Positions 1-63,200 of a stretch of DNA of 64,000 nucleotides are shown here, one piece after another. The notes beneath the pieces were generated by a model. It was not told the DNA's origin, did not search any database, and worked only from the letters and a program-made list of their open reading frames with translations. Position numbers and translations under genes: made by a program. The first letter of the stretch is position 1; each line of letters starts with the position of its first letter. Source of the DNA: Acetivibrio thermocellus ATCC 27405 (GTDB lineage: Bacteria > Bacillota > Clostridia > Acetivibrionales > Acetivibrionaceae); contig NC_009012.1 of the NCBI RefSeq assembly GCF_000015865.1, positions 2,349,081 through 2,413,080 of the forward strand, in the 5' to 3' direction.

Positions 1-2187
1 TATTGTCTCTGATTTTCCCGAACCTGTCATCCCGGCAACAAGCATGTGCGGTCCGTCAGCTTTTTCATGCAAATCAAGATATATCGGTCCATGCTCGTTT
101 TTACCAATCGGTACGCCAAGGCTTCGGGTAACATCATTTTTTTCTATGTCTTTCCAGTTGTCCAGTATAATTTTCTTTATTTCCCCTTTTTGTACTTTTT
201 CCGAATCGAAACCATAAAGTTCAAACAAAGTAACCATTGACGGCACTTTACCGTTTTCAGCAATTCTTGTGTAATAAATTGCGCTTAACTGTTTGAATGC
301 AAGAGCAAATTTTTCTCTATATTTTTCCGCATTGAATATATAGTTGTTCTGAAAATGCTTATATTCAATCAACTTGTCTGTATCACTGGCTTTGGATGTA
401 TCATCATCCCCTTCACTTAAAACGTTAAGGGTTTCTCTGCTTAAAATATTATAACGCAAGCTGCATCTTCTGGCATTCGGATTGTCCTTGTGAATTTCAA
501 CAATATTGCCGCAATATTTGGGTAGCTTGTCTTTCACCGGCTGTATGAAAATAAAAGTGAGCCCGTTGGAATTAACATAGGGTTCCCCCTCCTTGGGCAC
601 CTCCGGTAAAAATTTTGAAAAACCGGTTTCTTTAATGTTGTAGTCATAAAAGACAATGCAAACAATTTGAGTCAGCTTTTGATTTTGATTCACACCCTCA
701 TTTTTGTCACCGCTTGATTTGACACGCTCATTCATTATGCCAAGAAGCTGACCGAAAACAATACCGGCACTTTCCTTGTCAAACACAAACTGGGAAACCC
801 CATCAAAAAGTTCGTTTGCATGAGGCAAATATTTGTAATTTTGCAAAATTTCATTTTGTTTTGCAGGATCATCTTCCGGTTCGAAGAAAAACACAAACTG
901 TAAATCCTCCGGTGAATGGTAATATGCAAGTTCAAACACCACATGCTGAATAAAATTCCTTGAAGTTTGAATATCTTCAGAAATTACCCCCAAAGTACCG
1001 CAAGATTTCAAATCCAGCAGTAAAGGCGGTTTACTTCCGTCATCACTCCTTAAATATTTAAACCCAATATCACCGTCCTTATTGGCAAAATTATATGCCA
1101 AATCCGTAAGCAAAAATCTGTTTTTGTCTTCTTCCGCCCTTTCCGCGGGTGACAACTTTTTACGTCTTTTCTCCTTTTTTGATGGAAGGATTATTTCTAT
1201 TCTGTCTCCAATTTTTTTGTAGTATATATCATAAAAGATATGATCTTTTTTCTCGCTCTTTATCTCAAACAAAGGTTTAACTTCATCCGACATTCCAAGA
1301 GAGATAACCATAAAATCTTTATCATTCTGCGAACGCGAAAAAATGCTGCTGTGAATCTCAGCAGTATTCTTAAACAAAGTATCCATGTTTGGATATACAC
1401 TGTTCAGATATTTTATGTCACTTTTTTGCCATTCTTTTATTCTTTTAATTATTCTATGAATGTAATTTTCATAATTTTCCTTCCACACTTGTACATCCTT
1501 TTTATAATTGTTTCTTTGCTTCATAAAGTTATATGTGGAAGTTACAAGAGCGACCACTCCCATGGCCCCGGACATCAAAAGCATAGTATTTCCCAAGCTT
1601 GCAGCTTTCGGTGCAAACAAAATAATAAGATAGCGGGCCATTAACATTCCACCGGTAGATAAAACTGTGGGGATAATTATATCGAGATAAGAAGACTTAT
1701 CTTTCTTCGGCATTTCACCCGGTGGAATAATCTCAATCACCGATGGCTCAATGACATTTAAACGTCTTGTACTTATATTGTATTCCAGGGAATTTCCGGA
1801 TTTTAATATATAACTTCTTTCATTTTTCTGGAATAATGGTTTTGGTGCAACTTTCGTATCAGTTGTAAATAAAATACAGCTTGATGTTACAAAGCCTAAT
1901 TCATCCAATTTTTTATTAAATATTTTAGTTCCGTCAACCTCTTCCGTAAAATCAATAACGTTAAAATCTCCTTTTGCATTGTACAATACTTGCAATTCTT
2001 TACGGGTTTTTAAATATTTGTCAACCAGATTAAAATGTTTCTCATAACCCTTTGCTTTTTTTAATCCATAATATATTGCTTCAATAAGCGCTTTAAGAGA
2101 AATATCTTTTATAACAAGGAAAGACAACTCATCGGAAAAATCGTCACTCTCAAACTTTACAGAAATCATAATCTCATTGTTTTTCAT
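1..2187 (-). CDS. essC: EssC-type FtsK/SpoIIIE ATPase of a type VII secretion system (partial, 3' end outside window)
   Basis: Motor ATPase of the type VII (ESX/Ess) system that would export WXG100 and LXG-type proteins across the membrane. My translation gives 729 residues in the window. An N-terminal soluble part (about 1-160) is followed by two closely spaced membrane segments (about 165-215), then a charged region and the start of the FtsK/SpoIIIE domain. The Walker A motif (GMTGSGKSE, preceded by HMLVA) is encoded at about positions 6-40, so the protein runs off the left edge just after it. The start is ATG at 2187, with AAAGGA upstream. It follows the repeat-protein gene by 23 bp, consistent with one operon. 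Domain order and the WXG100 neighbours support EssC; membership of a particular ESS subtype was not established. Confidence 0.88.
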   Translation of the reverse strand, partial: MKNNEIMISVKFESDDFSDELSFLVIKDISLKALIEAIYYGLKKAKGYEKHFNLVDKYLKTRKELQVLYNAKGDFNVIDFTEEVDGTKIFNKKLDELGFVTSSCILFTTDTKVAPKPLFQKNERSYILKSGNSLEYNISTRRLNVIEPSVIEIIPPGEMPKKDKSSYLDIIIPTVLSTGGMLMARYLIILFAPKAASLGNTMLLMSGAMGVVALVTSTYNFMKQRNNYKKDVQVWKENYENYIHRIIKRIKEWQKSDIKYLNSVYPNMDTLFKNTAEIHSSIFSRSQNDKDFMVISLGMSDEVKPLFEIKSEKKDHIFYDIYYKKIGDRIEIILPSKKEKRRKKLSPAERAEEDKNRFLLTDLAYNFANKDGDIGFKYLRSDDGSKPPLLLDLKSCGTLGVISEDIQTSRNFIQHVVFELAYYHSPEDLQFVFFFEPEDDPAKQNEILQNYKYLPHANELFDGVSQFVFDKESAGIVFGQLLGIMNERVKSSGDKNEGVNQNQKLTQIVCIVFYDYNIKETGFSKFLPEVPKEGEPYVNSNGLTFIFIQPVKDKLPKYCGNIVEIHKDNPNARRCSLRYNILSRETLNVLSEGDDDTSKASDTDKLIEYKHFQNNYIFNAEKYREKFALAFKQLSAIYYTRIAENGKVPSMVTLFELYGFDSEKVQKGEIKKIILDNWKDIEKNDVTRSLGVPIGKNEHGPIYLDLHEKADGPHMLVAGMTGSGKSETI

Positions 2188-2210: not shown

Positions 2211-3590
2211 TTACTTATCATTCTTTTTTGACTGCAACAATTGTTCCAATTCCTCTGACACGTCAGGAATATTTACGGTAATTCCCTCGGGCAGACCGAC
2301 AGCCTTGTTTTCAACTTTTTCAAACGGTTTGAGTTTAATACTTGGTGACACCACAGTATCTGGGCCAAGAGCAACATGTGGCTGCGTTACCTTCACTTGC
2401 TTGAAATTCTCTGTTACAATACTTATTTTTGGAATCACAGGCAAAACAAAATTCTTATACTCTGGTTTTTTGAAGGTTCTTATGTCACTGCCAACTTTTG
2501 AAACCGGCGATAAAACCGGAACCTGAAGTTCCGCTCTTTTAAAGCTTTGTACTTTGTATTCCAATTTTGCAACCTGAGGTAAAGCTGAAAACTGAATTTC
2601 AGGTTTTGAAAATACTGTCCTTTTGATATCAATTCTGTATTTCTCAGGCAAATCCACCCTGTTTAATTCTGTTTTTCTGAATGCGGCAATTCTGACTTTC
2701 GGCTTTACAAACGATGGTATTCCTGCTTCTGATTTTTCAGGTTTTTTAAATACCATACTGACTTTTGATATATTGCGCAGTTCAGGCAAACTCAGCCGAA
2801 CAGACTTTTCATTTTTAACATAATTAACATCAATATAGGGTCTGGTTACCTGCGGCAACACAGTACCGGTCTGTTCGGGATTTCTGAAAGCCTTTACCTG
2901 TGCATGACAAACCTTTACCTGCGGCAAATCAGACAAAGATTTTTCCGGCGTAACAAAAGGCTTTAAACTTACACCAGACACAGAAATCTCCGGTATGCTT
3001 GCTTTTATGCCAGAAGAATCAAAACCTGGTGTTTTAAACGAAAAACCTGCCTGAATTTCCGGTTTGACAACTTCCGGTAAATTCACCTTGACTTCCCGTG
3101 TACCTTTATAGGATTTGTTCACCACGTTTATCTTCGGAATCACAGGCAAATCAGGATATTCCCCTTCCAACTTTTCAAACCGTAACTTGGGAATAACCGG
3201 TTTATCAACAGTCTGTAGTTCAGTTTCAACATTCTCCACTTTTTTTACAGGGCTGATATCGGTACTCACCGGCTTTGAAATCTCAGGCAACACAGGGTTT
3301 CCCGTTTCTGCCGGTTTAAACGGCTTAATTGGCAATTCCGGCTTTTCTACTGGCTTATATTCTGCTACTGTATATTCTGGTCTTGTATAAGGTTTAACTT
3401 CAAATTTTTTCATCACTGTAATTGGTTTTAAGTCAGGTTCATATGGCGGGATACGGACCTTTTCATAAGCCTCGATTTGCTCAACAAAAGCAGCTCTTTG
3501 TCGGTATATTCTAAGTTCTTTTTCATACTGTTTTCTCTGCTCCTCGTCAAGCAAGGATACTTCCTCTTCGCTAAGTATTCTGAACGCCAT
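2211..3590 (-). CDS. 459-residue Pro/Val/Lys-rich repeat protein of the type VII locus, function unknown
   Basis: Not recognised as a known family. After a charged helical N-terminus (about 1-50), the rest is built of about a dozen degenerate repeats of roughly 26-30 residues, each with a core like F+KPE followed by LP-x-V/I-x-KP (+ is a basic residue). No membrane segment, signal peptide or cysteine cluster is visible. Such regular Pro/Val alternation suggests an extended, beta-rich or filament-like protein, but this is inference. The gene sits between the WXG100-like genes and essC on the same strand, with GGGAG upstream of the ATG. A structural or substrate-handling part in this secretion system is plausible; no reaction can be named. 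Confidence 0.75.
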   Translation of the reverse strand: MAFRILSEEEVSLLDEEQRKQYEKELRIYRQRAAFVEQIEAYEKVRIPPYEPDLKPITVMKKFEVKPYTRPEYTVAEYKPVEKPELPIKPFKPAETGNPVLPEISKPVSTDISPVKKVENVETELQTVDKPVIPKLRFEKLEGEYPDLPVIPKINVVNKSYKGTREVKVNLPEVVKPEIQAGFSFKTPGFDSSGIKASIPEISVSGVSLKPFVTPEKSLSDLPQVKVCHAQVKAFRNPEQTGTVLPQVTRPYIDVNYVKNEKSVRLSLPELRNISKVSMVFKKPEKSEAGIPSFVKPKVRIAAFRKTELNRVDLPEKYRIDIKRTVFSKPEIQFSALPQVAKLEYKVQSFKRAELQVPVLSPVSKVGSDIRTFKKPEYKNFVLPVIPKISIVTENFKQVKVTQPHVALGPDTVVSPSIKLKPFEKVENKAVGLPEGITVNIPDVSEELEQLLQSKKNDK

Positions 3591-3705: not shown

Positions 3706-4011
3706 TCAGCCCTCGCTGCTGCTTATGCTTCCCGCCAATTGTTTATCAGTGTTTTCAAAGTTTTGTCTGTTGGCTTCAAGCAACTCGGCCATACCTCTGA
3801 GCGCAGCCGGTAAATCCTGATATACAAATGTTTTTACCTTCGAATTAATTAATTCATAAAGTGCGTCTTTTGTTTCACCTTCCATCTCGCTAATGGCATT
3901 ATTTAAACTTGAAATAAACTCATCAGCCACCGTTTCGTATTCACCCGCAATTCTTTGAATTTCACTTATCGCATCAAGCATGCCTTGGTTTACTATCCTG
4001 CAACCGGCCAT
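3706..4011 (-). CDS. WXG100-like small helical protein (101 aa)
   Basis: A 101-residue, all-helical protein of ESAT-6/WXG100 length. Two helices flank a central turn, where the usual W-x-G is replaced by a MEGET sequence (about residues 45-49). The family forms helical-hairpin dimers secreted by EssC. It is third in a run of three such genes (4383-4703, 4029-4358, 3706-4011) just upstream of the repeat protein and essC. No tryptophan is present, so membership rests on size, helicity and context. It could be a secreted substrate or a heterodimer partner. Confidence 0.7.
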   Translation of the reverse strand: MAGCRIVNQGMLDAISEIQRIAGEYETVADEFISSLNNAISEMEGETKDALYELINSKVKTFVYQDLPAALRGMAELLEANRQNFENTDKQLAGSISSSEG

Positions 4012-4382: not shown

Positions 4383-4703
4383 TTAATCAAATTTTATGCT
4401 TTCATTAAGCTGTTCAAACTTGATAAAAATATCTTTATAATAGCCTGTTCCGATTATCTCAGCGAGAGTATCGGAAACATGCTGAATTACAAGCAAAAAA
4501 TCATCAATTGGTTTGAGCAAAACTTCTTCCGCCGTTATTTTAACTTGCCTGCCGGCGGGAGTGTCCAATGCTGTCGTCAGATCTTTGTACATCTCCTCAA
4601 GCTTAGTTCTGAGTGCCTCAGTCCTTTCTTTTAGAGCTTTCATCTCAGCTGATGCAGTATGGAAAGCCATATCATCAAGGACTATATCTTGCTTTAACTT
4701 CAA
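4383..4703 (-). CDS. WXG100-like / ESAT-6-like protein (106 aa)
   Basis: A 106-residue helical protein with two predicted helices joined by an L-D-T-P-A-G-R turn (about residues 46-52). The turn sits where WXG100 proteins carry W-x-G, but here there is no tryptophan. The second helix is amphipathic and acidic. The start codon overlaps the stop of the TPR gene by 4 bp (ATGA), which shows translational coupling. It is the first of three tandem ESAT-6-sized genes. Assignment rests on length, fold and position. Confidence 0.68.
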   Translation of the reverse strand: MKLKQDIVLDDMAFHTASAEMKALKERTEALRTKLEEMYKDLTTALDTPAGRQVKITAEEVLLKPIDDFLLVIQHVSDTLAEIIGTGYYKDIFIKFEQLNESIKFD

Positions 4704-6223
4704 TGCTGCTCACCTCCGGACTTCGCTTTTTTAATCTTTTCCATAAATGAATTTCTCACTTCCTTCGTCAAAAGGCTGCAAAGCTGTTCGGCCTCATCAT
4801 ACTGCCCAATGTCAATGTAGCACTGGACTCTGAAAGTAACAGCAGTCAGATCCGTAGGGTCTTTAATCATAGCATTTCTGAAAAATTTGATTATTTCTTC
4901 ATATTTTGCCGCAAAGTCCGGTAAACCAAGTTCCTTCATAGCATTCGCTTCAGTATATTTGCCCAGGTAAACACTATATGTGTTTTCACTTGCTTGTAAT
5001 TTTCTGGAATATTCAATAACTTTTTCAAAATCTTTCTTTACTGTGTACGCTCCTACATAAAGCCTGTTTATCTGATCTATATTATCAGAAGAATATTCAA
5101 CCTTTTCGGACTCATCAAGTTTATATACTTCTGAGTCTTCCTTTGCATCACTTTTCACTTCATCTTCGATTACAGTTAAATAATCCCTGTTGCCTTCCTC
5201 ATCAGGTTCGATACTCTCAACCATTTCCTCAAATCCATAATCTCCAAACTGTTCCTCTATCTTTTTCCTGTCAGCCTCAATCATATCTTCGATGTCATAT
5301 TCCGTCAAAGTAACAGGCTCATAGTTCCTTACAACCACGTCAAACCCGTTGTTATAAGCCCAGATGGGATTTTGGGCAGCATTAAGGCACTCAATGGCTC
5401 TGTCGGCGTCTTCAAGCTGAAGATATATCTCAGCTGCGTTTATGTAACTTTCAACCACTTCTTTCACCGTAGGTTTCACCGTTTTTAAAGCCTTTTCAAT
5501 CATTCCAAGGGCAGTTTTAAAATGTTCTTTGTCATTGTCTGTCTTATACTTTTCAAGCTCAAGAGTCATGTAGTCAAAATAGAAATCCATCGTCGGTGAT
5601 GCATATTTTCTGGCTCTTTCCAACTCTTTCTCAGCTTCATCCAGACGCTTTGCCTGAACCAACAACTTAAATGCAATCTGATAGCCGGTATATTCAGATG
5701 GAGTAACCAGTTTGATTTGATTTGCCGTCATCAGTCCATTCTTAATATCGTTTTTGATACCGTATATAACAGCTTTGCGCTTAAGAATGTCAACATCGAT
5801 ACCGATAAGCTTTTCCGCTTTGTTTAAATTTACAAGAGCATCATCGTACCTTCCAATATCAAAGCAAAGGATTCCAAGCAAGTTGTAAAGCTGAACAAGA
5901 TTTTCCGGAGTACATCCTAACTCTTCTGCCTTCGCAAGATTTTTCAGGGCATCGGAAAATCTTTCAGCGGAAGCTAACGCAAATCCAAGGTCATAATACC
6001 TGTTGCCGTTGTCAGGATCATATTTGACAGCTGTCCTGTAATACTCAATGGCCTCATCATAACGGTCCAATGACATGCAAGCGTTTCCGGCGCATCTGTA
6101 TGCGTCAGGATTGTCCGGCGCCAGGGATATTGCCTGTCTGGCCAGCCTTAAAGCCGTTTCGTTTTCCTGGTTTAGAAAAGCCAGATGCGAATCAGCTATT
6201 ATATCTTTTACATTTATATTCAT
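4700..6223 (-). CDS. tetratricopeptide-repeat protein (507 aa) in the type VII operon
   Basis: A cytoplasmic TPR protein. Classical 34-residue TPR units are seen in the first half (for example around residues 20-55, with the G-N-x-x-x-x-L-x-x-Y-D-E-A pattern), and again near residues 440-490. An acidic linker (about 310-395) separates the two. No enzyme motif is seen. TPR proteins usually act as scaffolds or chaperones, so a chaperone for the three coupled ESAT-6-like proteins is a reasonable inference. Its stop overlaps the start of the next gene by 4 bp. The ATG at 6223 follows GGAGGTAAC. Confidence 0.82.
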   Translation of the reverse strand: MNINVKDIIADSHLAFLNQENETALRLARQAISLAPDNPDAYRCAGNACMSLDRYDEAIEYYRTAVKYDPDNGNRYYDLGFALASAERFSDALKNLAKAEELGCTPENLVQLYNLLGILCFDIGRYDDALVNLNKAEKLIGIDVDILKRKAVIYGIKNDIKNGLMTANQIKLVTPSEYTGYQIAFKLLVQAKRLDEAEKELERARKYASPTMDFYFDYMTLELEKYKTDNDKEHFKTALGMIEKALKTVKPTVKEVVESYINAAEIYLQLEDADRAIECLNAAQNPIWAYNNGFDVVVRNYEPVTLTEYDIEDMIEADRKKIEEQFGDYGFEEMVESIEPDEEGNRDYLTVIEDEVKSDAKEDSEVYKLDESEKVEYSSDNIDQINRLYVGAYTVKKDFEKVIEYSRKLQASENTYSVYLGKYTEANAMKELGLPDFAAKYEEIIKFFRNAMIKDPTDLTAVTFRVQCYIDIGQYDEAEQLCSLLTKEVRNSFMEKIKKAKSGGEQH

Positions 6224-6384: not shown

Positions 6385-6948
6385 TTAAACTGCCTGATTC
6401 ATTTTCCGTCTGTAATATTCCATATCATATGAAGCTTGCGTTTTAGCCCTCTTCCAATCCTGCAGACGGTTTTCTGTTAAAGTTATATTCCTTTTTATCT
6501 CGTCCAAATCGTTTTCAGCTTGCTGCAATTGCCTTTTCAAATCTGCAATTTTAGTTTCCAACTCATTTTTTCTTGTTTTAAAATTTGTAAATATGTCATT
6601 TATTGTCTTCTTTGTATTTCTCATTTCATCGCCGTAAACTTCATTTAAATTTTTGTTCACTACATTACTGCAACTAACCATACTGCTGTAATTAATTGCC
6701 GCCTCATTGGTTTTGTTGGAAATATCTGAAATTTTATTCTCAAAATTGCCTTCGCTTTTAATTATCTCCTTTACTTTATCAAGCGCTTCCTCATGGTTTT
6801 TAATATCAGTTTTCAACTGATTGATAAGATTGATTTTTTGCTGTTGTTGCTTTTTTAAATCATCTATTTTATTCTGACAACTGGTAATTTCCGCACAAGC
6901 CTCGTAATATCTGCTTTTCGCTCTCTGATAAAGATAGCTGTAGTCCAC
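6385..6948 (-). CDS. small coiled-coil protein (187 aa), possible LXG-associated partner
   Basis: A 187-residue, almost wholly alpha-helical, highly charged protein. Long coiled coils span about residues 15-65 and 100-185, with Gln- and Lys-rich heptads. There is no signal peptide or membrane segment. In type VII loci, small helical proteins next to LXG toxins pair with the toxin N-terminus (Lap/DUF5082-type proteins). The position between the toxin array and the WXG100/EssC genes suits that role, but no family motif is decisive. The ATG follows an AGGGAGGG site and 500 bp of AT-rich DNA that probably holds the promoter for the secretion operon. Confidence 0.6.
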   Translation of the reverse strand: MDYSYLYQRAKSRYYEACAEITSCQNKIDDLKKQQQQKINLINQLKTDIKNHEEALDKVKEIIKSEGNFENKISDISNKTNEAAINYSSMVSCSNVVNKNLNEVYGDEMRNTKKTINDIFTNFKTRKNELETKIADLKRQLQQAENDLDEIKRNITLTENRLQDWKRAKTQASYDMEYYRRKMNQAV

Positions 6949-7560: not shown

Positions 7561-7854
7561 ATGGAAAAGAGAAAACATTTTACACCTGAACAAAAAGCAA
7601 AAATAGTGATTGAGGTCATCAAGGGAGAAAGAACGCTGAATGAGATTGCTGCAGAATATGGAATTCATCCAAACCTGTTAAGTCGCTGGAAGACTGAATT
7701 CATAAGCAATGCGGGCAGAGTATTCAGCAAGGAAACTGATGAAGTAGAGAAGGTCAAACAGTCGTATGAAAAGGAGAAGGACGAACTGCTTAAGCAAATT
7801 GGTCAACTATCATATGAGGTTGCCTGGCTTAAAAAAAAATCTGGCCTCCTCTAA
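7561..7854 (+). CDS. IS3-family OrfA, copy 1
   Basis: 97-residue helix-turn-helix protein (transposase_8 type) that recognises the IS ends. The N-terminus K-R-K-H-F-T-P-E-Q-K-A-K-I is followed by the HTH (I-A-A-E-Y-G-I-H-P-N-L-L-S-R-W), then a leucine-zipper tail. A run of nine A at the end of the frame (near 7831) is a likely slippage site for making an OrfAB fusion. OrfB lies in the +1 frame relative to OrfA, so transcript slippage or a separate OrfB start is needed. Confidence 0.93.
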   Translation: MEKRKHFTPEQKAKIVIEVIKGERTLNEIAAEYGIHPNLLSRWKTEFISNAGRVFSKETDEVEKVKQSYEKEKDELLKQIGQLSYEVAWLKKKSGLL

Positions 7855-7870
7855 ATCCCGAGAAGACCGC

Positions 7871-8713
7871 ATGAAAATGATTGATAGAAATGAGAAGAAA
7901 CTCAGCATAACAAGGCAAGCAGAATTATTGAGCTTAAACCGTACGAGCGTTTACTACAAGCCTGCTCCGGTAAATGAGGAGGAATACCTGATTAAGCGTA
8001 TCATTGATGAAATTTACGCGTCTTATCCGGAATATGGCTATCGCAGGATGACAAGTATATTGAACAAGGATTATCACATTCATATCAATCGAAAACGGAC
8101 CCGGCGTTATATGAGGGAAATGGGCATACATGGATTCTGTCCTGGCCCCAACCTCAGCAAACGAATACATGGTAAGAATTTGTATCCATATCTGTTGAGA
8201 AACTTGAAAATTGATCATCCTAATCAGGTATGGTCCATAGATGTGACCTATTGCCGAATGAAACGCGGTTTCATGTATATGGTTGCAATAATAGACTGGT
8301 ATTCTCGGTATATTGTTGGGTTTGAACTATCAAACACTCTTGATAAGACATTCGTCATAGAAGCAATCCAAAAGGCCATAAAGCGATATGGCAAGCCTGA
8401 AATCATGAACAGTGATCAAGGCTCACAGTTTACCAGTGATGATTACATAAATCTATTAAAAAATAACGGTATCAAAATATCTATGGATGGAAAAGGAAGA
8501 GCATTAGACAACCAAAGGATAGAACGATTTTTCCGTTCCTACAAGTGGGAGAAACTTTATCTTGAAGAGTGCGAAACGGTACAACAACTTAGACAAATCA
8601 CAAAGGAATATGTGGAGCACTATAACCATAGGAGACCGCACCAGTCATTGGATTACAAAACACCGGCAGAGTATTACTTTGGAGGATATGACCAGCTACT
8701 GGCAGTTGTATAG
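7871..8713 (+). CDS. IS3-family OrfB transposase, copy 1
   Basis: DDE integrase-fold transposase (rve). Visible catalytic motifs are W-S-I-D-V-T-Y (first Asp), N-S-D-Q-G-S-Q-F (second Asp) and the E in N-Q-R-I-E-R-F-F-R-S. The C-terminus carries the usual Y-N-x-x-R-P-H-Q-S-L-x-Y-K-T-P motif. I chose the ATG at 7871 (M-K-M-I-D-R-N-E-K) because OrfB proteins normally begin here; the open frame extends back to 7766 and would be used in a frameshifted fusion. Confidence 0.92.
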   Translation: MKMIDRNEKKLSITRQAELLSLNRTSVYYKPAPVNEEEYLIKRIIDEIYASYPEYGYRRMTSILNKDYHIHINRKRTRRYMREMGIHGFCPGPNLSKRIHGKNLYPYLLRNLKIDHPNQVWSIDVTYCRMKRGFMYMVAIIDWYSRYIVGFELSNTLDKTFVIEAIQKAIKRYGKPEIMNSDQGSQFTSDDYINLLKNNGIKISMDGKGRALDNQRIERFFRSYKWEKLYLEECETVQQLRQITKEYVEHYNHRRPHQSLDYKTPAEYYFGGYDQLLAVV

Positions 8714-11181: not shown

Positions 11182-11304
11182 ATTGTTCAGGCAATACGTA
11201 AATACTTTATGACTGTACAAAGCTCCTTTGCAAAAATCAAGCGGCTTTGTGCGTATATCGTATATATTAATTCTTTACAAGCTACTAACTCTTTGAAAAC
11301 CTAA
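11182..11304 (+). pseudogene. C-terminal scar of an IS630-family transposase
   Basis: The plus strand encodes I-V-Q-A-I-R-K-Y-F-M-T-V-Q-S-S-F-A-K-I-K-R-L, then a stop near 11304. The larger relic at 22945-23211 has the same ending after an S-S-E-L-N-S-I-D-H-L motif typical of IS630/Tc1-like C-termini. The scar runs directly into the truncated primase frame and also occurs at 50849-50971, so both copies descend from one event. Confidence 0.65.
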
Positions 11305-12081
11305 ACTATATATTTTCTTAATTTCCGCTTCATCAAGCGGAGGATTGCACCTTGCGTTGTTTTCTGCAAGTAATGCCGTATAGATGCCTTCCTCCGTCAT
11401 TCCTCTTGCTCTCATGGTTCCTGCAAGGCTTGTCAGGGTGCTGTTTCGGCTGCCTTCCTTAATCCCTGCTACAATACTTCTACCTTCAAAGGGTGTAAGC
11501 AATACTTCCTCCCTTTCCATGAGCTTTAATAACCATGCTGGAGCTTCTGCCGGGGTTCTGTCAAAGGGAGAATGATCCTTTATCCATTCATACCGATTAC
11601 CACTTACATGAATGCTTGGAGCCACGACAATCAGACCACCTGTTGAACGCGTATCAAGACCCAATGCAAACTTGGTCTTATTTGGAATACTCCTGCCTTG
11701 TGAGTATTTGAAGATATAGTGCAGACCGCCACCTCCGGTAACAGCGGTAACCGTATCAGGAAGTTTTCCATGTGTTGCTTCAAGAGCCGATAGAGTTTCA
11801 TCACCGCCATCGTCCACATCAAGCACCAGCCAGCCGGATTTCGCACCTGTAGGAATGCCTATATTGGCATTGGGTGTTTTCGTCCACCATTTCTTTATTT
11901 GCTCAACATCAGTAGTGGAATTATTGTACCAGCCGGTATATAACGGATGCTTTCCCTTGCTGTCGCAATTTTTCCCTGCCTTGCAGGAGCAGGAGCCATC
12001 CTCACAAATCCAGTGCAGAGGTATAACCGGGATATTGGCTTCTGCGTATTTTATTGCTGCGTCCATCATTGTCATTTTCAA
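11275..12081 (-). pseudogene. truncated primase-polymerase (N-terminal domain only), copy 1
   Basis: About 268 residues equal to the N-terminal PrimPol part of the 720-residue protein at 17340-19499. It has the cysteine-containing H-W-I-C-E-D-G-S-C-S-C insert, V-L-D-V-D-D catalytic acidic motif and the R-S-T-G-G-L-I motif. After N-P-P-L-D-E-A-E-I-K-K the true sequence is lost and an unrelated tail (I-Y-S-L-G-F) is read from the IS630 scar. The SF3 helicase half is absent, so replication activity is unlikely. TTG at 12081 is chosen as start because AGGAGGTGAGAAG precedes it at good spacing in all three copies; ATG at 12075 is the alternative. Confidence 0.8.
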
Positions 12082-12205
12082 ACTTCTCACCTCCTGTCGT
12101 GCTGAAAATAAACAGAGCCTGACAAATAGTTTTTAGACTATCTGCCAGGCTCTATAGGTGAGTCATTCGCTCCCTTTTTGGCTCTGTGCCAGATTTATTC
12201 ACTTT

Positions 12206-13555: not shown

Positions 13556-14779
13556 TCAGTTCTTGTCGTCAACCTTTTCATATGGCCTGTATTCCGTCCT
13601 GGTTTTCATCATGCCGTAAATAATCCTCACAAGCCGCCTTGCCACGCACACAAGCGCCTGTGGCTTGTTCTTGCCCTCTTTGACCTTCTGCTCAAAATAC
13701 TCCCTGAATACCGGGTGTCTTGGCTTTCCTGAGGCCGATACTGCTACCATCTGGATTGCAAGAAAGTGAAATATCGCATTTAGTGCCCTGTTGCCATTCC
13801 TGCATCTTTGGTCTTTACCCTTTCCGGCAGAGCTGAATTGCACCGGTGCCAAGCCCATAAACCGAGCCAGCTTGTCTGAGTCTGGGAAGCGGTTAATATC
13901 TCCGATTTCAGATATTATCTGTGCTTCTGTAACAAGGTCGATTCCCGGCATTGTATGTAGCTTATAGCCTGTCAAAGGTATCAGCTTTCTTAGTTCATCG
14001 TCAATTTCGGCAATCAACTCCTTGTTGTGCCTGATATCCTTTACAATGTTTCTGACAATAAAATCCCTTTCGGGCTGATAGTCCTTTCTTGTGTCTCCAT
14101 CCCTTTCAATCATGGATATAATCTCATGGATGCGCTGTATTTTAAGCGCCTGATGCACAGGCTTTATCGTCTGATATATTTCTTCCGGTATTGTGTTCCA
14201 TATATACTCTGGTGACGGGTAGTTCTCCCAGAAGCATAAGGCACTCTTGGAATCAATCATGGCAAAGAATTTCCTGTAGGATGGGTAGCTATAAGCAAGC
14301 TGGCTGTGGAGCTGGTTCTTGTTCATCACATTGCTCTTTACAATCAAATCCCGTCTTTTCACCATTTGCCGGATTGTCCAGAATATATCCTCATGCTTGG
14401 CATCCTTCAGAGTGTCTACCATATCCCGGAGAACCCTTGCCACACAATAGGCATCATAGGAGTCATCCTTGTAAATAATGGGGTTTGCCAGTCTTACAGC
14501 GCTTGTATAGGCAGGGTTAACGTGCTTGACTTCAAACTTCCTGCCCACCAGATAGGCAGCAAGGTTTCTGCCAAAGCCTCTGGTATCTTCAAGTCCAAAT
14601 ACGATTTCCTTTGTCCCGCAAATCTTCCTAACATCCTCAACGAATGCAGGGTATCTGGATGGTCTATTCTCAAAGTTAACCTCACCCAGTTTATTCATCC
14701 AACAATCTATAACAACTGCACAGTGGGTATCCTTGTGCATATCAATTCCAACAAAGCAGGTGTTTCGTTTATGATAAAT
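13556..14779 (-). CDS. IS110-family DEDD transposase 1
   Basis: Serine-assisted DEDD recombinase of the IS110 group: an N-terminal RuvC-like domain (G-L-E-D-T, D-D-S-Y-D-A-Y) and a C-terminal transposase_20 domain (T-M-P-G-I-D, G-L-A-P-V-Q-F-S-S-A-G-K). Starting at the only ATG (14740, M-H-K-D-T) would omit the first catalytic Asp in F-V-G-I-D. The frame upstream is open and conserved with element 2 back to an ATT (14779) preceded by AAGGAG, so an AUU start is proposed. About 407 residues. The product would insert the element using the leader RNA as guide. Confidence 0.85.
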   Translation of the reverse strand: MYHKRNTCFVGIDMHKDTHCAVVIDCWMNKLGEVNFENRPSRYPAFVEDVRKICGTKEIVFGLEDTRGFGRNLAAYLVGRKFEVKHVNPAYTSAVRLANPIIYKDDSYDAYCVARVLRDMVDTLKDAKHEDIFWTIRQMVKRRDLIVKSNVMNKNQLHSQLAYSYPSYRKFFAMIDSKSALCFWENYPSPEYIWNTIPEEIYQTIKPVHQALKIQRIHEIISMIERDGDTRKDYQPERDFIVRNIVKDIRHNKELIAEIDDELRKLIPLTGYKLHTMPGIDLVTEAQIISEIGDINRFPDSDKLARFMGLAPVQFSSAGKGKDQRCRNGNRALNAIFHFLAIQMVAVSASGKPRHPVFREYFEQKVKEGKNKPQALVCVARRLVRIIYGMMKTRTEYRPYEKVDDKN

Positions 14780-60248: not shown

Positions 60249-63200
60249 TCAAGCCGCCAGCTCGTTTTCCTCCTCTTCTTTTCTCCTTTTTCTTATATTA
60301 TGAATCACAGCAGCAACTATTGCCGCAATTAATACTGCAGATCCCGCTGCAATAACCCACAGCCAGAAAAATCCAACATGTATATTCCTTATCTCTTGAA
60401 TATTGTTCACATTTCCCGCCATATCCACAAGGACAATTCCAACGTTGTGCCAACCCTTTCCGAGGGTAAAAGTTAATGTATTGTTATCACTGTAATATTT
60501 GAAATCTATTTCCCTGCCGTTATCATATACCTTGCACCGGTTTTCGTCAACCAATTCGTTGATATTCGAAACAGTAATTGTACGTTCCTCTTCTCCAAAG
60601 TACCAATGCCACGACCTGAATTCTTCAGGCAATTCGCACGTCGGAGCTATATTATCAATATGCATTGTACCCAAGTCCACTCTCCTGCCGTCATTCTTTA
60701 CTGACAAATGCAGTTCAATATCTGTATCATCCTGGAAAGTCTCCTTGAAAAAGCGGGATTCCAAAACAAGGTTGTGAATATTAAACCCATATATGCTGTC
60801 ATCTATCGTTCCCGTAGCATCAGTTTTTATTTCATCACCGTTATTGTCTCTTAAAACAACCTCAACATCAGTATCGTCTTTTGCAAAAGCACATATTTTT
60901 ATATCGCTGAAGTTATCAGGCCTTTTGCTGATAGGCTCGCCGTTTTCGTATTGGAAAGAATACAACCCCGTTTTTGCTTCCGGGTTGCTGTCCATGATAT
61001 ACGCCAGCACATCCTGCTCAACCATTCTCGCATATGTATTCAGGTTAAGCAGGCTCTCATTTCCGGCCACATCCACAGCAGTCAATTCCAATGCATAAAC
61101 ACCGTCCCGTGTGAAATCGGGCAAAGTGAAAATACTTCCCTTGATTCTGCCGGATTTGTCCGTATCCTCATCCAGATACACCCTTACCGGTTTAATGACG
61201 GTTTCAGCTTCTTTGCTCGTATGGTCCGGAATATAAACCGTCAGGTTATATCTGATATGATCAATATTTAAATCACTAAACTCAACAGTAGGAGCTGGAT
61301 CGTCTTTTCTTGAATAAGGATATACGTCTACAAACGCAGTATCATTTTCATCGGCCAAAACACCGTTCCTTGCCTTAACAACCGGTGGTGTTTTGTCAAT
61401 TTCAAAGACAACCGTACGTCTTGGCTCAGCACTGTTTCCGGCCAAATCTTCGGGATTAATTTCAATCTTGTAGACAGCATCTCTGCTAAACGTAAAGGAA
61501 ATTGTATGAACATCACCTTCCGACACCCAACGGGATGTACTCAATATTTCAGATGTTATGTCAACAAAACCTTCTTCGTTATGTTCTTCTCCCGGATCCT
61601 TTCTGAAAACTTTCAAACCAGCCAGTTGAGGGTCAAAATTATGCTCAGTTATTTTTATAACAGCAGTTTTATCTGTATTAAAACTATTATTTGTAGCCTC
61701 GTTCGTAAATGTTGCAAAATTCTCCTCAATACTGGGTTTAGTTTTATCCACATAGAACAGTTTCTCATTTTCTCCGCTGAAATTCACAACCGCAGTATGA
61801 TTGCCCAAATCAGTACCGCTGATATCAAATACATAGTCGCCCTCGTCAAACTCAATCACCGCAACATGCTCAGTATTTGACTTTTGAGAAAAGGAAACAG
61901 TCGGCACTCTTCCAATTTTATTTTCAATAGAAGTTTTTATCAAACCGGCATCAAAATTCCTCTCGACAACCGTTATCTGCGCAGCCCTGTTTCCGCTGTA
62001 GTAATAATTGTTTTTGCTTTCATCAGGACGGAACTCTACATTAATCACCGGTGCCGTTTTATCAATTGTAACTTTTTCGGTTCGGATATTTTCTTTTTTG
62101 TTCCCTGAACGGTCGCTTGCATCAAAAGTCAGGAAAATATCATTATTGTCTGAACTGAAAGTAAATACTTTTGTAACCTTTCTAACAAGGTTCTGATCCA
62201 TTTCCGAAACTATCCATCCGTTTTCAAGAACATCACCTACTTTATAGCCTTTGTTGGCAATCAAAGTGCTCTTTCTCTCAAAGGATTCTTTTTCCGAACT
62301 CAGTGAAAATCCTATTTCCTTTATACCCGAGTCATAATCCGAGATTGTGACAGTAAAGCTCATGTCGGTGACATACAATTTGTTCCCCTCGGCATCACTG
62401 TAGTTTGTAGTCGTATTGTTTGTAATGCTGATCTCCGGAGCAACATCATCACTTACAAATCCTCCCGGAGTCACTTCCCGTGATTTGTTGCCGGCATTGT
62501 CAAATGCCTCTACAAATATCTGTCCTTTAAAACCTTTTGGAACAGATATAACCGCTGTACCGTCCGCAATAATTTGAGTTCCTTTTTTCTCTTCAGATTT
62601 TTTCCCGTTATCGTACGATACAAGACGGTAGTTTATCTTGTCAAGCCCTGAAGAAGGTTTGTTATCCGACACACTGACAACAACGTTGAATTCAGTTTTG
62701 AAATAGAAGCCATATTCCAGAAAATCGATGAATTGAGATGTACTTTTAACACCGTCAGATGCTGACGGAACAAAACTGAAGTCTGTAACAACAGGGATAT
62801 CTGTATCCTTATATACAACATCGCTTAAAAAGTAACTGTTTCCTGCATTATCCACTGCAGTAACTTCAATCAAATAAGAGCCGTCATCCGCCCTGACTGC
62901 CTGCCCGGTACTTACCAGAAAAACTTCTTCATGTGTTTCTTTGTTATAAAATTCAGCATCTATAATTTTCCCCTCTATATCTTTTGTAATATCAGTACCA
63001 TTAATTTTAATCCTGACAGAACGAATACCTGCATCCAAATCTTTAACGGATACTTTGAACACAACATCGTCCAAATACCATTTCTTACCGTCATTTGCTG
63101 TAAAATCAGGTTCCGGGCAAAAAATGCTTACTGCCGGATTAACCGTTTCAATAATCAGTTTGCTGCTCTTAAAATCGGAATTTACTTTATCAGGCGTTAC

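What the first reader, a model, noticed from the sequence alone, without database searches (positions are those of the whole stretch)
2211..3590. Unknown repeat protein inside the type VII core
A dozen 26-30-residue F-K-K-P-E / L-P-x-V-x-K-P repeats between the WXG100 genes and essC are not a component I know from Ess systems. The regular Pro-rich period suggests an extended spoke or filament, possibly adapted to thick cell envelopes.
Basis: partly seen in the sequence, partly recalled or inferred. Interest (0 to 1): 0.6.

Follow-up and report, generated by a model that had tools for sequence, protein, structure and literature searches.

The report
Repeat-fibre subunit of clostridial secretion machine
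A protein built from a 23-residue proline-rich repeat sits beside the motor gene of a little-known bacterial toxin-secretion system in nearly every bacterium found here to carry that system, so it is probably an undescribed working part of the machine.

Summary
Window 2211-3590(-) is an intact 459-aa gene with about 14 repeats between the WXG100 genes and essC, but the period is exactly 23 residues, not 26-30. It has no Pfam, NCBIfam or significant PDB-sequence match. Scanning genomes for the neighbouring essC found 31 assemblies: in 27 the repeat gene is complete and directly upstream, in 2 it is cut by contig ends, in 1 it lies 15 kb away, in 1 it was not found. No homologue turned up elsewhere. 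A conserved ~66-aa helical head precedes fast-evolving repeats in which close relatives differ mainly by substitutions and whole-unit gaps. No signal peptide or membrane segment is apparent. The system has a split ATPase with an N-terminal ubiquitin-like domain, a TPR protein, a kinase, a giant Ig-like protein and toxin-like cargo; it matches none of T7SSa-j in the main text of Garrett 2024. I read the protein as a cytoplasmic adaptor arm tying the WXG/TPR module to the ATPase. That mechanism is inferred; an exported filament is not excluded.

The parts
2211..3590 (-). REP: the 459-aa repeat protein
   Evidence: one orthologue per locus in 27 of 33 related loci
3390..3590 (-). REP conserved head (residues 1-67): AF2 helices 8-12 and 16-43, block-mean pLDDT 77-92 over residues 1-50
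   Evidence: 33-71% identity to homologues versus 19-54% for the repeats where blastp aligned them
2256..3389 (-). Repeat region (residues 68-445) with 14 units of 23 residues, no predicted secondary structure apart from the start of the C-terminal helix, low pLDDT
2223..2261 (-). REP C-terminal helix (residues 444-456), pLDDT about 60; sequence poorly conserved outside close relatives
1..2187 (-). EssC1: N-terminal 729 of 1066 aa of the T7SS ATPase; one FtsK domain; continues left of the window, followed by EssC2 (583 aa)
1858..2187 (-). Predicted ubiquitin-like (beta-grasp) domain, EssC1 residues 1-110, where T7SSb EssC has FHA domains
3706..4011 (-). WXG100 protein (101 aa)
   Evidence: PF06013 29.9 bits
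4029..4358 (-). WXG100 protein (109 aa)
   Evidence: PF06013 28.5 bits
4383..4703 (-). 106-aa small conserved protein of the cluster (perhaps WXG100-like by size and sequence character, an inference; no family over its cut-off)
4700..6223 (-). TPR protein (507 aa) at the head of the conserved run of genes
   Evidence: PF14559 82 bits
60921..64000 (-). Part of the giant Ig-like protein of the same system; the TM protein and kinase genes lie just right of the window

Best explanation
REP is a dedicated, non-enzymatic core subunit of a distinct clostridial type VII secretion system. Its conserved N-terminal helical head docks on one partner. The 23-residue repeat array forms a long, register-locked extended arm offering about 14 similar binding sites, inside the cytoplasm, next to the EssC ring. 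It would gather the WXG100/TPR/effector complexes and hold them at the ATPase. Shown: the gene, the repeats, the co-occurrence with this T7SS, the conserved head, the scarcity of non-unit gaps between close relatives, and purifying selection. Inferred: cytoplasmic location, the partners (EssC, TPR, WXG proteins), the multivalent-arm mechanism.
For: Co-occurrence: in the order, 4 of 58 genomes have REP and the same 4 of 58 have this EssC1 at E 1e-60 or better. Of 31 assemblies with this EssC1 from the GTDB scan (33 loci, less one generic FtsK and one duplicate assembly), 30 have REP: 27 complete and directly upstream; 2 with a repeat tail at the contig start and a head match on another contig of the same assembly (L050, L051); 1 on the same contig 15.4 kb away beside TPR-106aa-WXG-WXG (L055/L069). 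In 15 of the 27 adjacent cases REP overlaps the essC1 start, 12 of them by 4 nt, suggesting translational coupling. REP is tied to both modules: in L055 it stays with TPR/WXG away from essC1, in L037 with essC1 without the upstream TPR/WXG genes. Single hit per genome, unlike the effectors. Purifying selection with fast change: dN/dS 0.33 against 0.08 for TPR, window vs L042. No gap in 459 residues at 57% identity (window vs L042); in several close pairs the only large gap is exactly 23. Low Gly, high Val/Ile/Leu/Phe.
Against: One assembly with this EssC1 (G431, holding L060 and by title L040) shows no REP by the head profile, so it may be dispensable there, or missed in a fragmented MAG. AF2 gives no confident fold for the repeats (mean pLDDT 52, pTM 0.18, 9 sequences), so an ordered arm is not demonstrated. 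Lag 23 is the top period in 19 of 29 homologues, 17 of them with z above 5; the other ten peak at 46 (L032), 45 (L052), 47 (L038), 30 (L029), 5 (L048) or weakly, z 3.2 or less, at 69, 22, 26, 8 and 5 (L044, L045, L046, L057, L039). In the divergent Ruminococcus group (L044-L047, L057) gaps are mostly not unit-sized, and some R. flavefaciens-group pairs also have 24, 22, 13 or 9-residue gaps. No interaction evidence exists. A cysteine-content test of location was inconclusive: REP 0.61%; kinase, TPR and EssC2 2.05, 1.69 and 1.39%; EssC1 0.88%; the three WXG-type proteins and the 106-aa protein 0.13-1.17%; Ig-like protein 0.41%; effector heads 2.44%.
Confidence: 0.45

Rival explanations
1. REP is itself exported by the T7SS and forms an extended wall-spanning or surface filament.
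For: Encoded immediately after the WXG100 pair; fast side-chain evolution is common in surface-exposed proteins; K/P/E-rich repeats are typical of Gram-positive wall-spanning stalks (both recalled, no call); cysteine content is lowish.
Against: No Sec signal or TM apparent. The head is one long helix plus a short one in the model, not the two-helix hairpin of known T7 cargo (recalled). Single copy, often overlapping essC1, whereas the candidate cargo comes in several copies. The system already has a giant Ig-like protein with, by eye, signal and TM segments.
Confidence: 0.22
2. REP is a soluble targeting factor or chaperone for the effectors (working like EspG or Lap proteins), the repeats binding the conserved effector N-terminal domain.
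For: The same effector N-terminal domain recurs many times at these loci (45 matches over 40 partly overlapping loci; 5 in the window), so many cargo proteins share one head that a multivalent binder could hold.
Against: REP travels with core genes, not with individual effectors; the repeats diverge quickly (19-54% identity where aligned) while effector heads are 26-66% identical to the window's in the 40 of 45 matches listed; no resemblance to known families.
Confidence: 0.15
3. REP is a length ruler that sets the size of an assembled structure, as rulers do in type III secretion.
For: Homologue lengths vary (345-527 aa), in several close pairs by one whole unit.
Against: No needle-like structure is known in any T7SS (recalled); no structural or sequence evidence.
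Confidence: 0.05
4. The repeats are low-complexity drift with no function.
For: Repeats of L049 and L056 are near-identical expansions with different unit sequences.
Against: dN/dS 0.33 for the window pair and 0.17-0.44 in four other pairs; between window and L042, unit positions 1, 5, 11 and 12 (F, E, L, P) are 78-92% identical and 7 and 16 are 71%, the rest 21-64%; retained in 30 of 31 assemblies.
Confidence: 0.03

Closest known systems
T7SSd/T7SSe/T7SSj (Garrett, Higginson and Palmer 2024, PMC11217815; abstract, methods, results and discussion read; introduction, table contents, figures and supplements not seen)
   Same: FtsK-type ATPase, WXG100 proteins, Ser/Thr kinase, small TM protein, very large Sec-signal/Ig-like/C-terminal-TM protein, toxin cargo nearby.
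   Different: Here the ATPase is split in two genes and starts with a predicted ubiquitin-like domain instead of FHA domains; there is a separate TPR protein and REP. The paper's text gives the TsxC ATPases four NTPase domains and describes no repeat protein (TsjD has a TPR domain on its kinase). Sequence homology of the kinase, TM and Ig-like proteins to TsdD/H/I was not tested.
T7SSg (same paper, Acetivibrio and Paenibacillus)
   Same: Genus Acetivibrio; two WXG100 proteins; ATPase without FHA.
   Different: T7SSg has a separate ubiquitin-like TsgB, a beta-propeller TsgL and adjacent Tad pilus genes in the paper's description; none was recognised by eye in the ORF list, and no search for them was run.
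T7SSb (Ess/Yuk)
   Same: EssC homology (TIGR03928, 415 bits for EssC1 and 130 for EssC2, both below the 778-bit cut-off).
   Different: No YukC/EssB in the genome; split EssC; no FHA match.
ESX/T7SSa Pro-rich accessory proteins such as EspI/EspK (recalled, no call)
   Same: Pro-rich proteins encoded in ESX loci.
   Different: No sequence match reported in any family search; no 23-residue period known to me.

Membership tests
T7SS (any) | EccC/EssC FtsK-type membrane ATPase | tested here: met
   TIGR03928 415 bits and PF01580 85 bits for EssC1, TIGR03928 130 bits for EssC2
T7SS (any) | WXG100-family protein(s) | tested here: met
   Two above the PF06013 cut-off; a third, after EssC2, at 21.8 bits, below the cut-off
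T7SSb (Ess/Yuk) | EssB/YukC | tested here: not met
   PF10140: 0 matches at E 0.01 in the whole genome; control rings in 3 of 14 genomes, over the cut-off in 1; Bacillus subtilis is among the 3
T7SSb (Ess/Yuk) | N-terminal FHA domains on EssC | tested here: not met
   0 of 21 EssC1 N-termini match an FHA family in Pfam; residues 1-110 model as a beta-grasp with Ub-like matches
T7SSb (Ess/Yuk) | EsaA and EssA | not tested
   No search run for these families
T7SSd/e/j | Kinase, small TM protein and giant Ig-like envelope protein in the cluster | tested here: met
   By architecture only. Kinase profile: 4 of 4 genomes searched. In 40 partly overlapping, often truncated loci: kinase at 23 loci (24 matches), TM protein 14 matches, giant protein 18 matches of which two are one gene
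T7SSd/e/j | N-terminal FHA domains on the ATPase | tested here: not met
T7SSd/e/j | Orthology of ATPase to TsdC/TseC/TsjC | not tested
   Their sequences were not fetched
T7SSg | Beta-propeller TsgL and Tad pilus genes next to the ATPase | tested here: inconclusive
   In the 8 kb beyond the last T7SS gene the long ORFs look, by eye, like thioredoxin-reductase/AhpF, AhpC and xylanase/esterase proteins; no propeller or Tad search was run
Known protein family for REP | Match in Pfam, NCBIfam, PHROGs or PDB sequences | tested here: not met
   None over a curated cut-off; PHROGs and PDB matches E 0.005 or worse. Best sub-threshold: DUF5972 in L056 (20.2 of 22.6 bits), KIP1 in one head (E 8e-4)

The most novel reading that the evidence does not exclude
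REP is an ordered fibre with an undescribed 23-residue rung, the first repeat-fibre subunit known in any type VII system, acting as a fixed-register arm on the split EssC ring. The operon would define an undescribed T7SS subtype in which the ubiquitin-like subunit is fused to the ATPase.
Probability: 0.25. Interest if true: 0.8.

Novelty: new variant of a known kind. Interest (0 to 1): 0.58.

Why it matters
Known T7SS subtypes are defined by their accessory subunits, and how cargo reaches the ATPase is open. Here is an unannotated subunit with a strict repeat, tied by linkage and, often, overlapping reading frames to the ATPase, in gut, rumen and cellulose-degrading bacteria including a genetically workable non-pathogen (recalled). 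It makes the question of what a T7SS adaptor does directly testable, and with the predicted Ub-ATPase fusion and split ATPase it suggests a further subtype beyond the ten in the paper text I read.

Tried and rejected
Single-protein scan of genome contigs with REP found nothing, probably because short peptide patterns fail on fast-evolving repeats; replaced by a scan with its neighbour EssC1. tblastn in plasmids found no REP and only distant EssC (14 records, none covering 80%). PHROGs, PDB and Pfam matches are weak and scattered, and were rejected as chance. AF2 of the full protein gave no usable fold for the repeats, so no fold search was run with it. AF2/VIA for the EssC1 N-terminus: the 50 shown rows, Z 7.4-8.5, are mostly PI3K, FERM/kindlin, plexin and ubiquitin-like entries, which I take as beta-grasps (fold names partly recalled); the tool warns that Z under 8 may mean a common arrangement. 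A 79-residue chain of the B. subtilis type VIIb core unit (9qks_A) is among them at Z 7.7, rmsd 2.5, 78 aligned. Foldseek rows also include staphylococcal superantigen-like and Eap proteins. FHA does not appear among the shown rows, which by itself proves nothing. Cysteine content as a test of location was inconclusive. Hydrophobic moment: z above 2 at extended angles (160-180 degrees) in 5 of 9 proteins, at 120 degrees in 4 of 9, at the helix angle in 1 of 9 (L049); weak support only. C-terminal helix: conserved only in close relatives. Literature: searches for T7SS in C. thermocellum, Ruminococcus+EssC, T7SS subtypes, T7SSc/g/k, Lachnospiraceae+WXG100, proline-rich repeat+EssC, and WXG100+cellulolytics (listings with abstract starts only, 10 of 136 papers listed and 10 of 42) showed no description of this protein or arrangement; beyond listings I read sections of PMC11217815 and two passages of PMC3935865. 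A locus-tag search by remembered tags found nothing; the tags were a guess. Class- and phylum-wide searches added no new genomes (3 of 391; 1 of 398).

Rows dropped before counts: L059 (Shewanella, 29% identity, generic FtsK) left out of the 33 loci; L040 and L060 counted as one assembly from their record titles. In one search I gave 27 of 29 family members (without L049 and G009), (structure alignment) 9 of 29, the closest ones; (head profile) 24 rows, 28 EssC1 N-termini.

Full report
What is there. The window is in a single-contig 3,843,301-base genome; that size is the one I remember for Acetivibrio (Clostridium) thermocellus ATCC 27405, and the closest named relative found is A. straminisolvens. 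At its left end, on the minus strand, runs a gene series: TPR protein (507 aa), 106-aa protein, two WXG100 proteins, the 459-aa repeat protein (REP), EssC1 (1066 aa, one FtsK domain), EssC2 (583 aa, two P-loop regions), and a third WXG100-like protein. REP is an ordinary intact gene. Its repeat period is exactly 23 residues: autocorrelation z 8.1 at lag 23 with harmonics, against a maximum of 4.8 in 300 shuffles. A profile trained on four orthologues marks 14 units from residue 68 to 445, one of them weak. The consensus is F-K-K-P-E-x5-L-P-x-V-x-K-P-x-I-x-V-K-x.

Anatomy. Residues 1-66 are not repetitive. The first 70 residues align without gaps in 29 homologues and 24 of the 29 start MAF(K/R) (one initial M stands for a GTG start). 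AF2 gives helices 8-12 and 16-43 with good confidence there, no secondary structure and low confidence over the repeats, and a short C-terminal helix. Low confidence is not proof of disorder, since the alignment had 9 rows. Against plain disorder: window and L042 differ at 43% of positions without a single gap, and in several close pairs the only large gap is exactly 23 residues. dN/dS of REP is 0.33 for that pair against 0.08 for TPR and 0.05 for the EssC1 N-terminus; in four other pairs REP is 0.17-0.44 and TPR 0.08-0.13. So the protein changes fast in side chains, largely keeps its register between close relatives, and is under purifying selection. Near-identical 23-mers of quite different sequence have been amplified in L049 and L056, so the unit length outlives the unit sequence. 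Counter-evidence: lag 23 is the top period in only 19 of 29 homologues, 17 of them with z above 5, and the divergent Ruminococcus group shows many gaps that are not unit-sized.

Distribution. In the 58 genomes of the order, 4 carry REP and the same 4 carry this EssC1. In 391 genomes drawn from the class, 3 and the same 3, all among those 4. In 398 from the phylum, the head profile finds only the window's genome. A GTDB contig scan with EssC1 returned 33 loci: one is a generic FtsK in Shewanella, two belong to one assembly by title, leaving 31 assemblies, mainly Ruminococcus and Lachnospiraceae, with Ruminiclostridium, A. straminisolvens and two Coriobacteriia MAG contigs of 10 kb, whose binning I did not check. 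REP is complete and directly upstream of essC1 in 27; a profile from four sequences, two of them in these loci, picks exactly these 27 among 2878 ORFs of the loci, E from 2e-251 to 2.5e-4. In two more (L050, L051) the contig starts inside the repeats and the head profile matches on another contig of the assembly. In L055 REP sits 15.4 kb from essC1 on the same contig with TPR-106aa-WXG-WXG. In one assembly (L040/L060) none was found. In L037 REP is next to essC1 although the TPR and WXG genes are not upstream on that contig. REP therefore sticks to either half of the system. In 15 of the 27 adjacent cases the two frames overlap.

The host system. EssC1 matches the EssC model well below its full-length cut-off and lacks FHA matches. 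Its first 110 residues model as a beta-grasp (block-mean pLDDT 67-93); the structural rows are mostly PI3K, FERM/kindlin and ubiquitin-like beta-grasps at Z 7.4-8.5, one of them a short chain of a B. subtilis type VIIb core unit. That it is a fused YukD/EsaB is inference. No YukC/EssB was found in the genome. A kinase, a small TM protein and a giant Ig-like protein are present at many related loci. In R. hungatei and G009 the kinase lies about 17 and 26 kb from REP, and in the window's genome about 63 kb away, just beyond the window's right end, with the giant protein reaching back into the window at 60921. Between them and REP lie effector-like genes, five matches to one N-terminal domain and ten HINT-domain matches in the window. 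The main text of Garrett 2024 describes T7SSa-j. The kinase/TM/Ig set resembles T7SSd/e/j, but those ATPases carry FHA domains, and neither REP, a stand-alone TPR subunit nor a split ATPase is described in what I read. I did not see that paper's supplements, so the arrangement may be in its neighbourhood data.

How it most likely works. REP has no apparent signal peptide or TM segment, is single-copy and tied to the ATPase gene. The simplest reading is a cytoplasmic adaptor: a conserved head fixed to one partner, and a long arm with about 14 similar sites facing many copies of another, perhaps WXG100/effector complexes or the TPR protein. The cytoplasmic location and every partner are inference. 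The rival that it is exported and spans the wall remains open because T7 cargo needs no Sec signal.

Verdict. A real, conserved, unannotated subunit of an apparently undescribed T7SS variant; the mechanism is open.

Noticed in passing
window 1858-2187 (-): EssC1 begins with a predicted ubiquitin-like domain, as if the YukD/EsaB subunit were fused to the ATPase; the rest of the ATPase is a separate overlapping gene.
   Followed up: partly
window 9527-59383 (-): Toxin-like genes sharing an N-terminal domain (5 matches) and a PT-HINT domain (10 matches), several apparently truncated; likely T7SS cargo.
   Followed up: partly
L078 2-7647 (G000:C1:2410001-2417646): Kinase, small TM protein and giant Ig-like protein of the same T7SS, about 59-66 kb from the ATPase genes.
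   Followed up: yes
window 6385-6948 (-): 187-aa coiled-coil-like protein with relatives at 15 other related loci.
   Followed up: partly
window 7561-8713 (+) and 13556-14740 (-): Transposases within the T7SS island: rve-type with HTH_21, and IS110-type.
   Followed up: partly
window 11275-12090 (-): Prim-Pol/PriCT_1 primase-like protein, perhaps from a mobile element inside the island.
   Followed up: no
L042/L015 ATPase gene; G009:C1:958280-960144 kinase: Reading frames broken in these two genes; draft-assembly error or decay not distinguished.
   Followed up: no
L015 1453-2712; L017 11463-12920; L048 3700-5376: Effector-like genes with different toxin ends: TNT, Colicin-DNase/WHH and NucA/NucB-type DNase matches.
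   Followed up: no
L037 4229-7663: EssC1 of a Coriobacteriaceae MAG has a Pro/Thr/Ala-rich stretch within its N-terminal region.
   Followed up: no
L029 10558-15975: The small TM protein and the giant Ig-like protein match within one open frame here.
   Followed up: no
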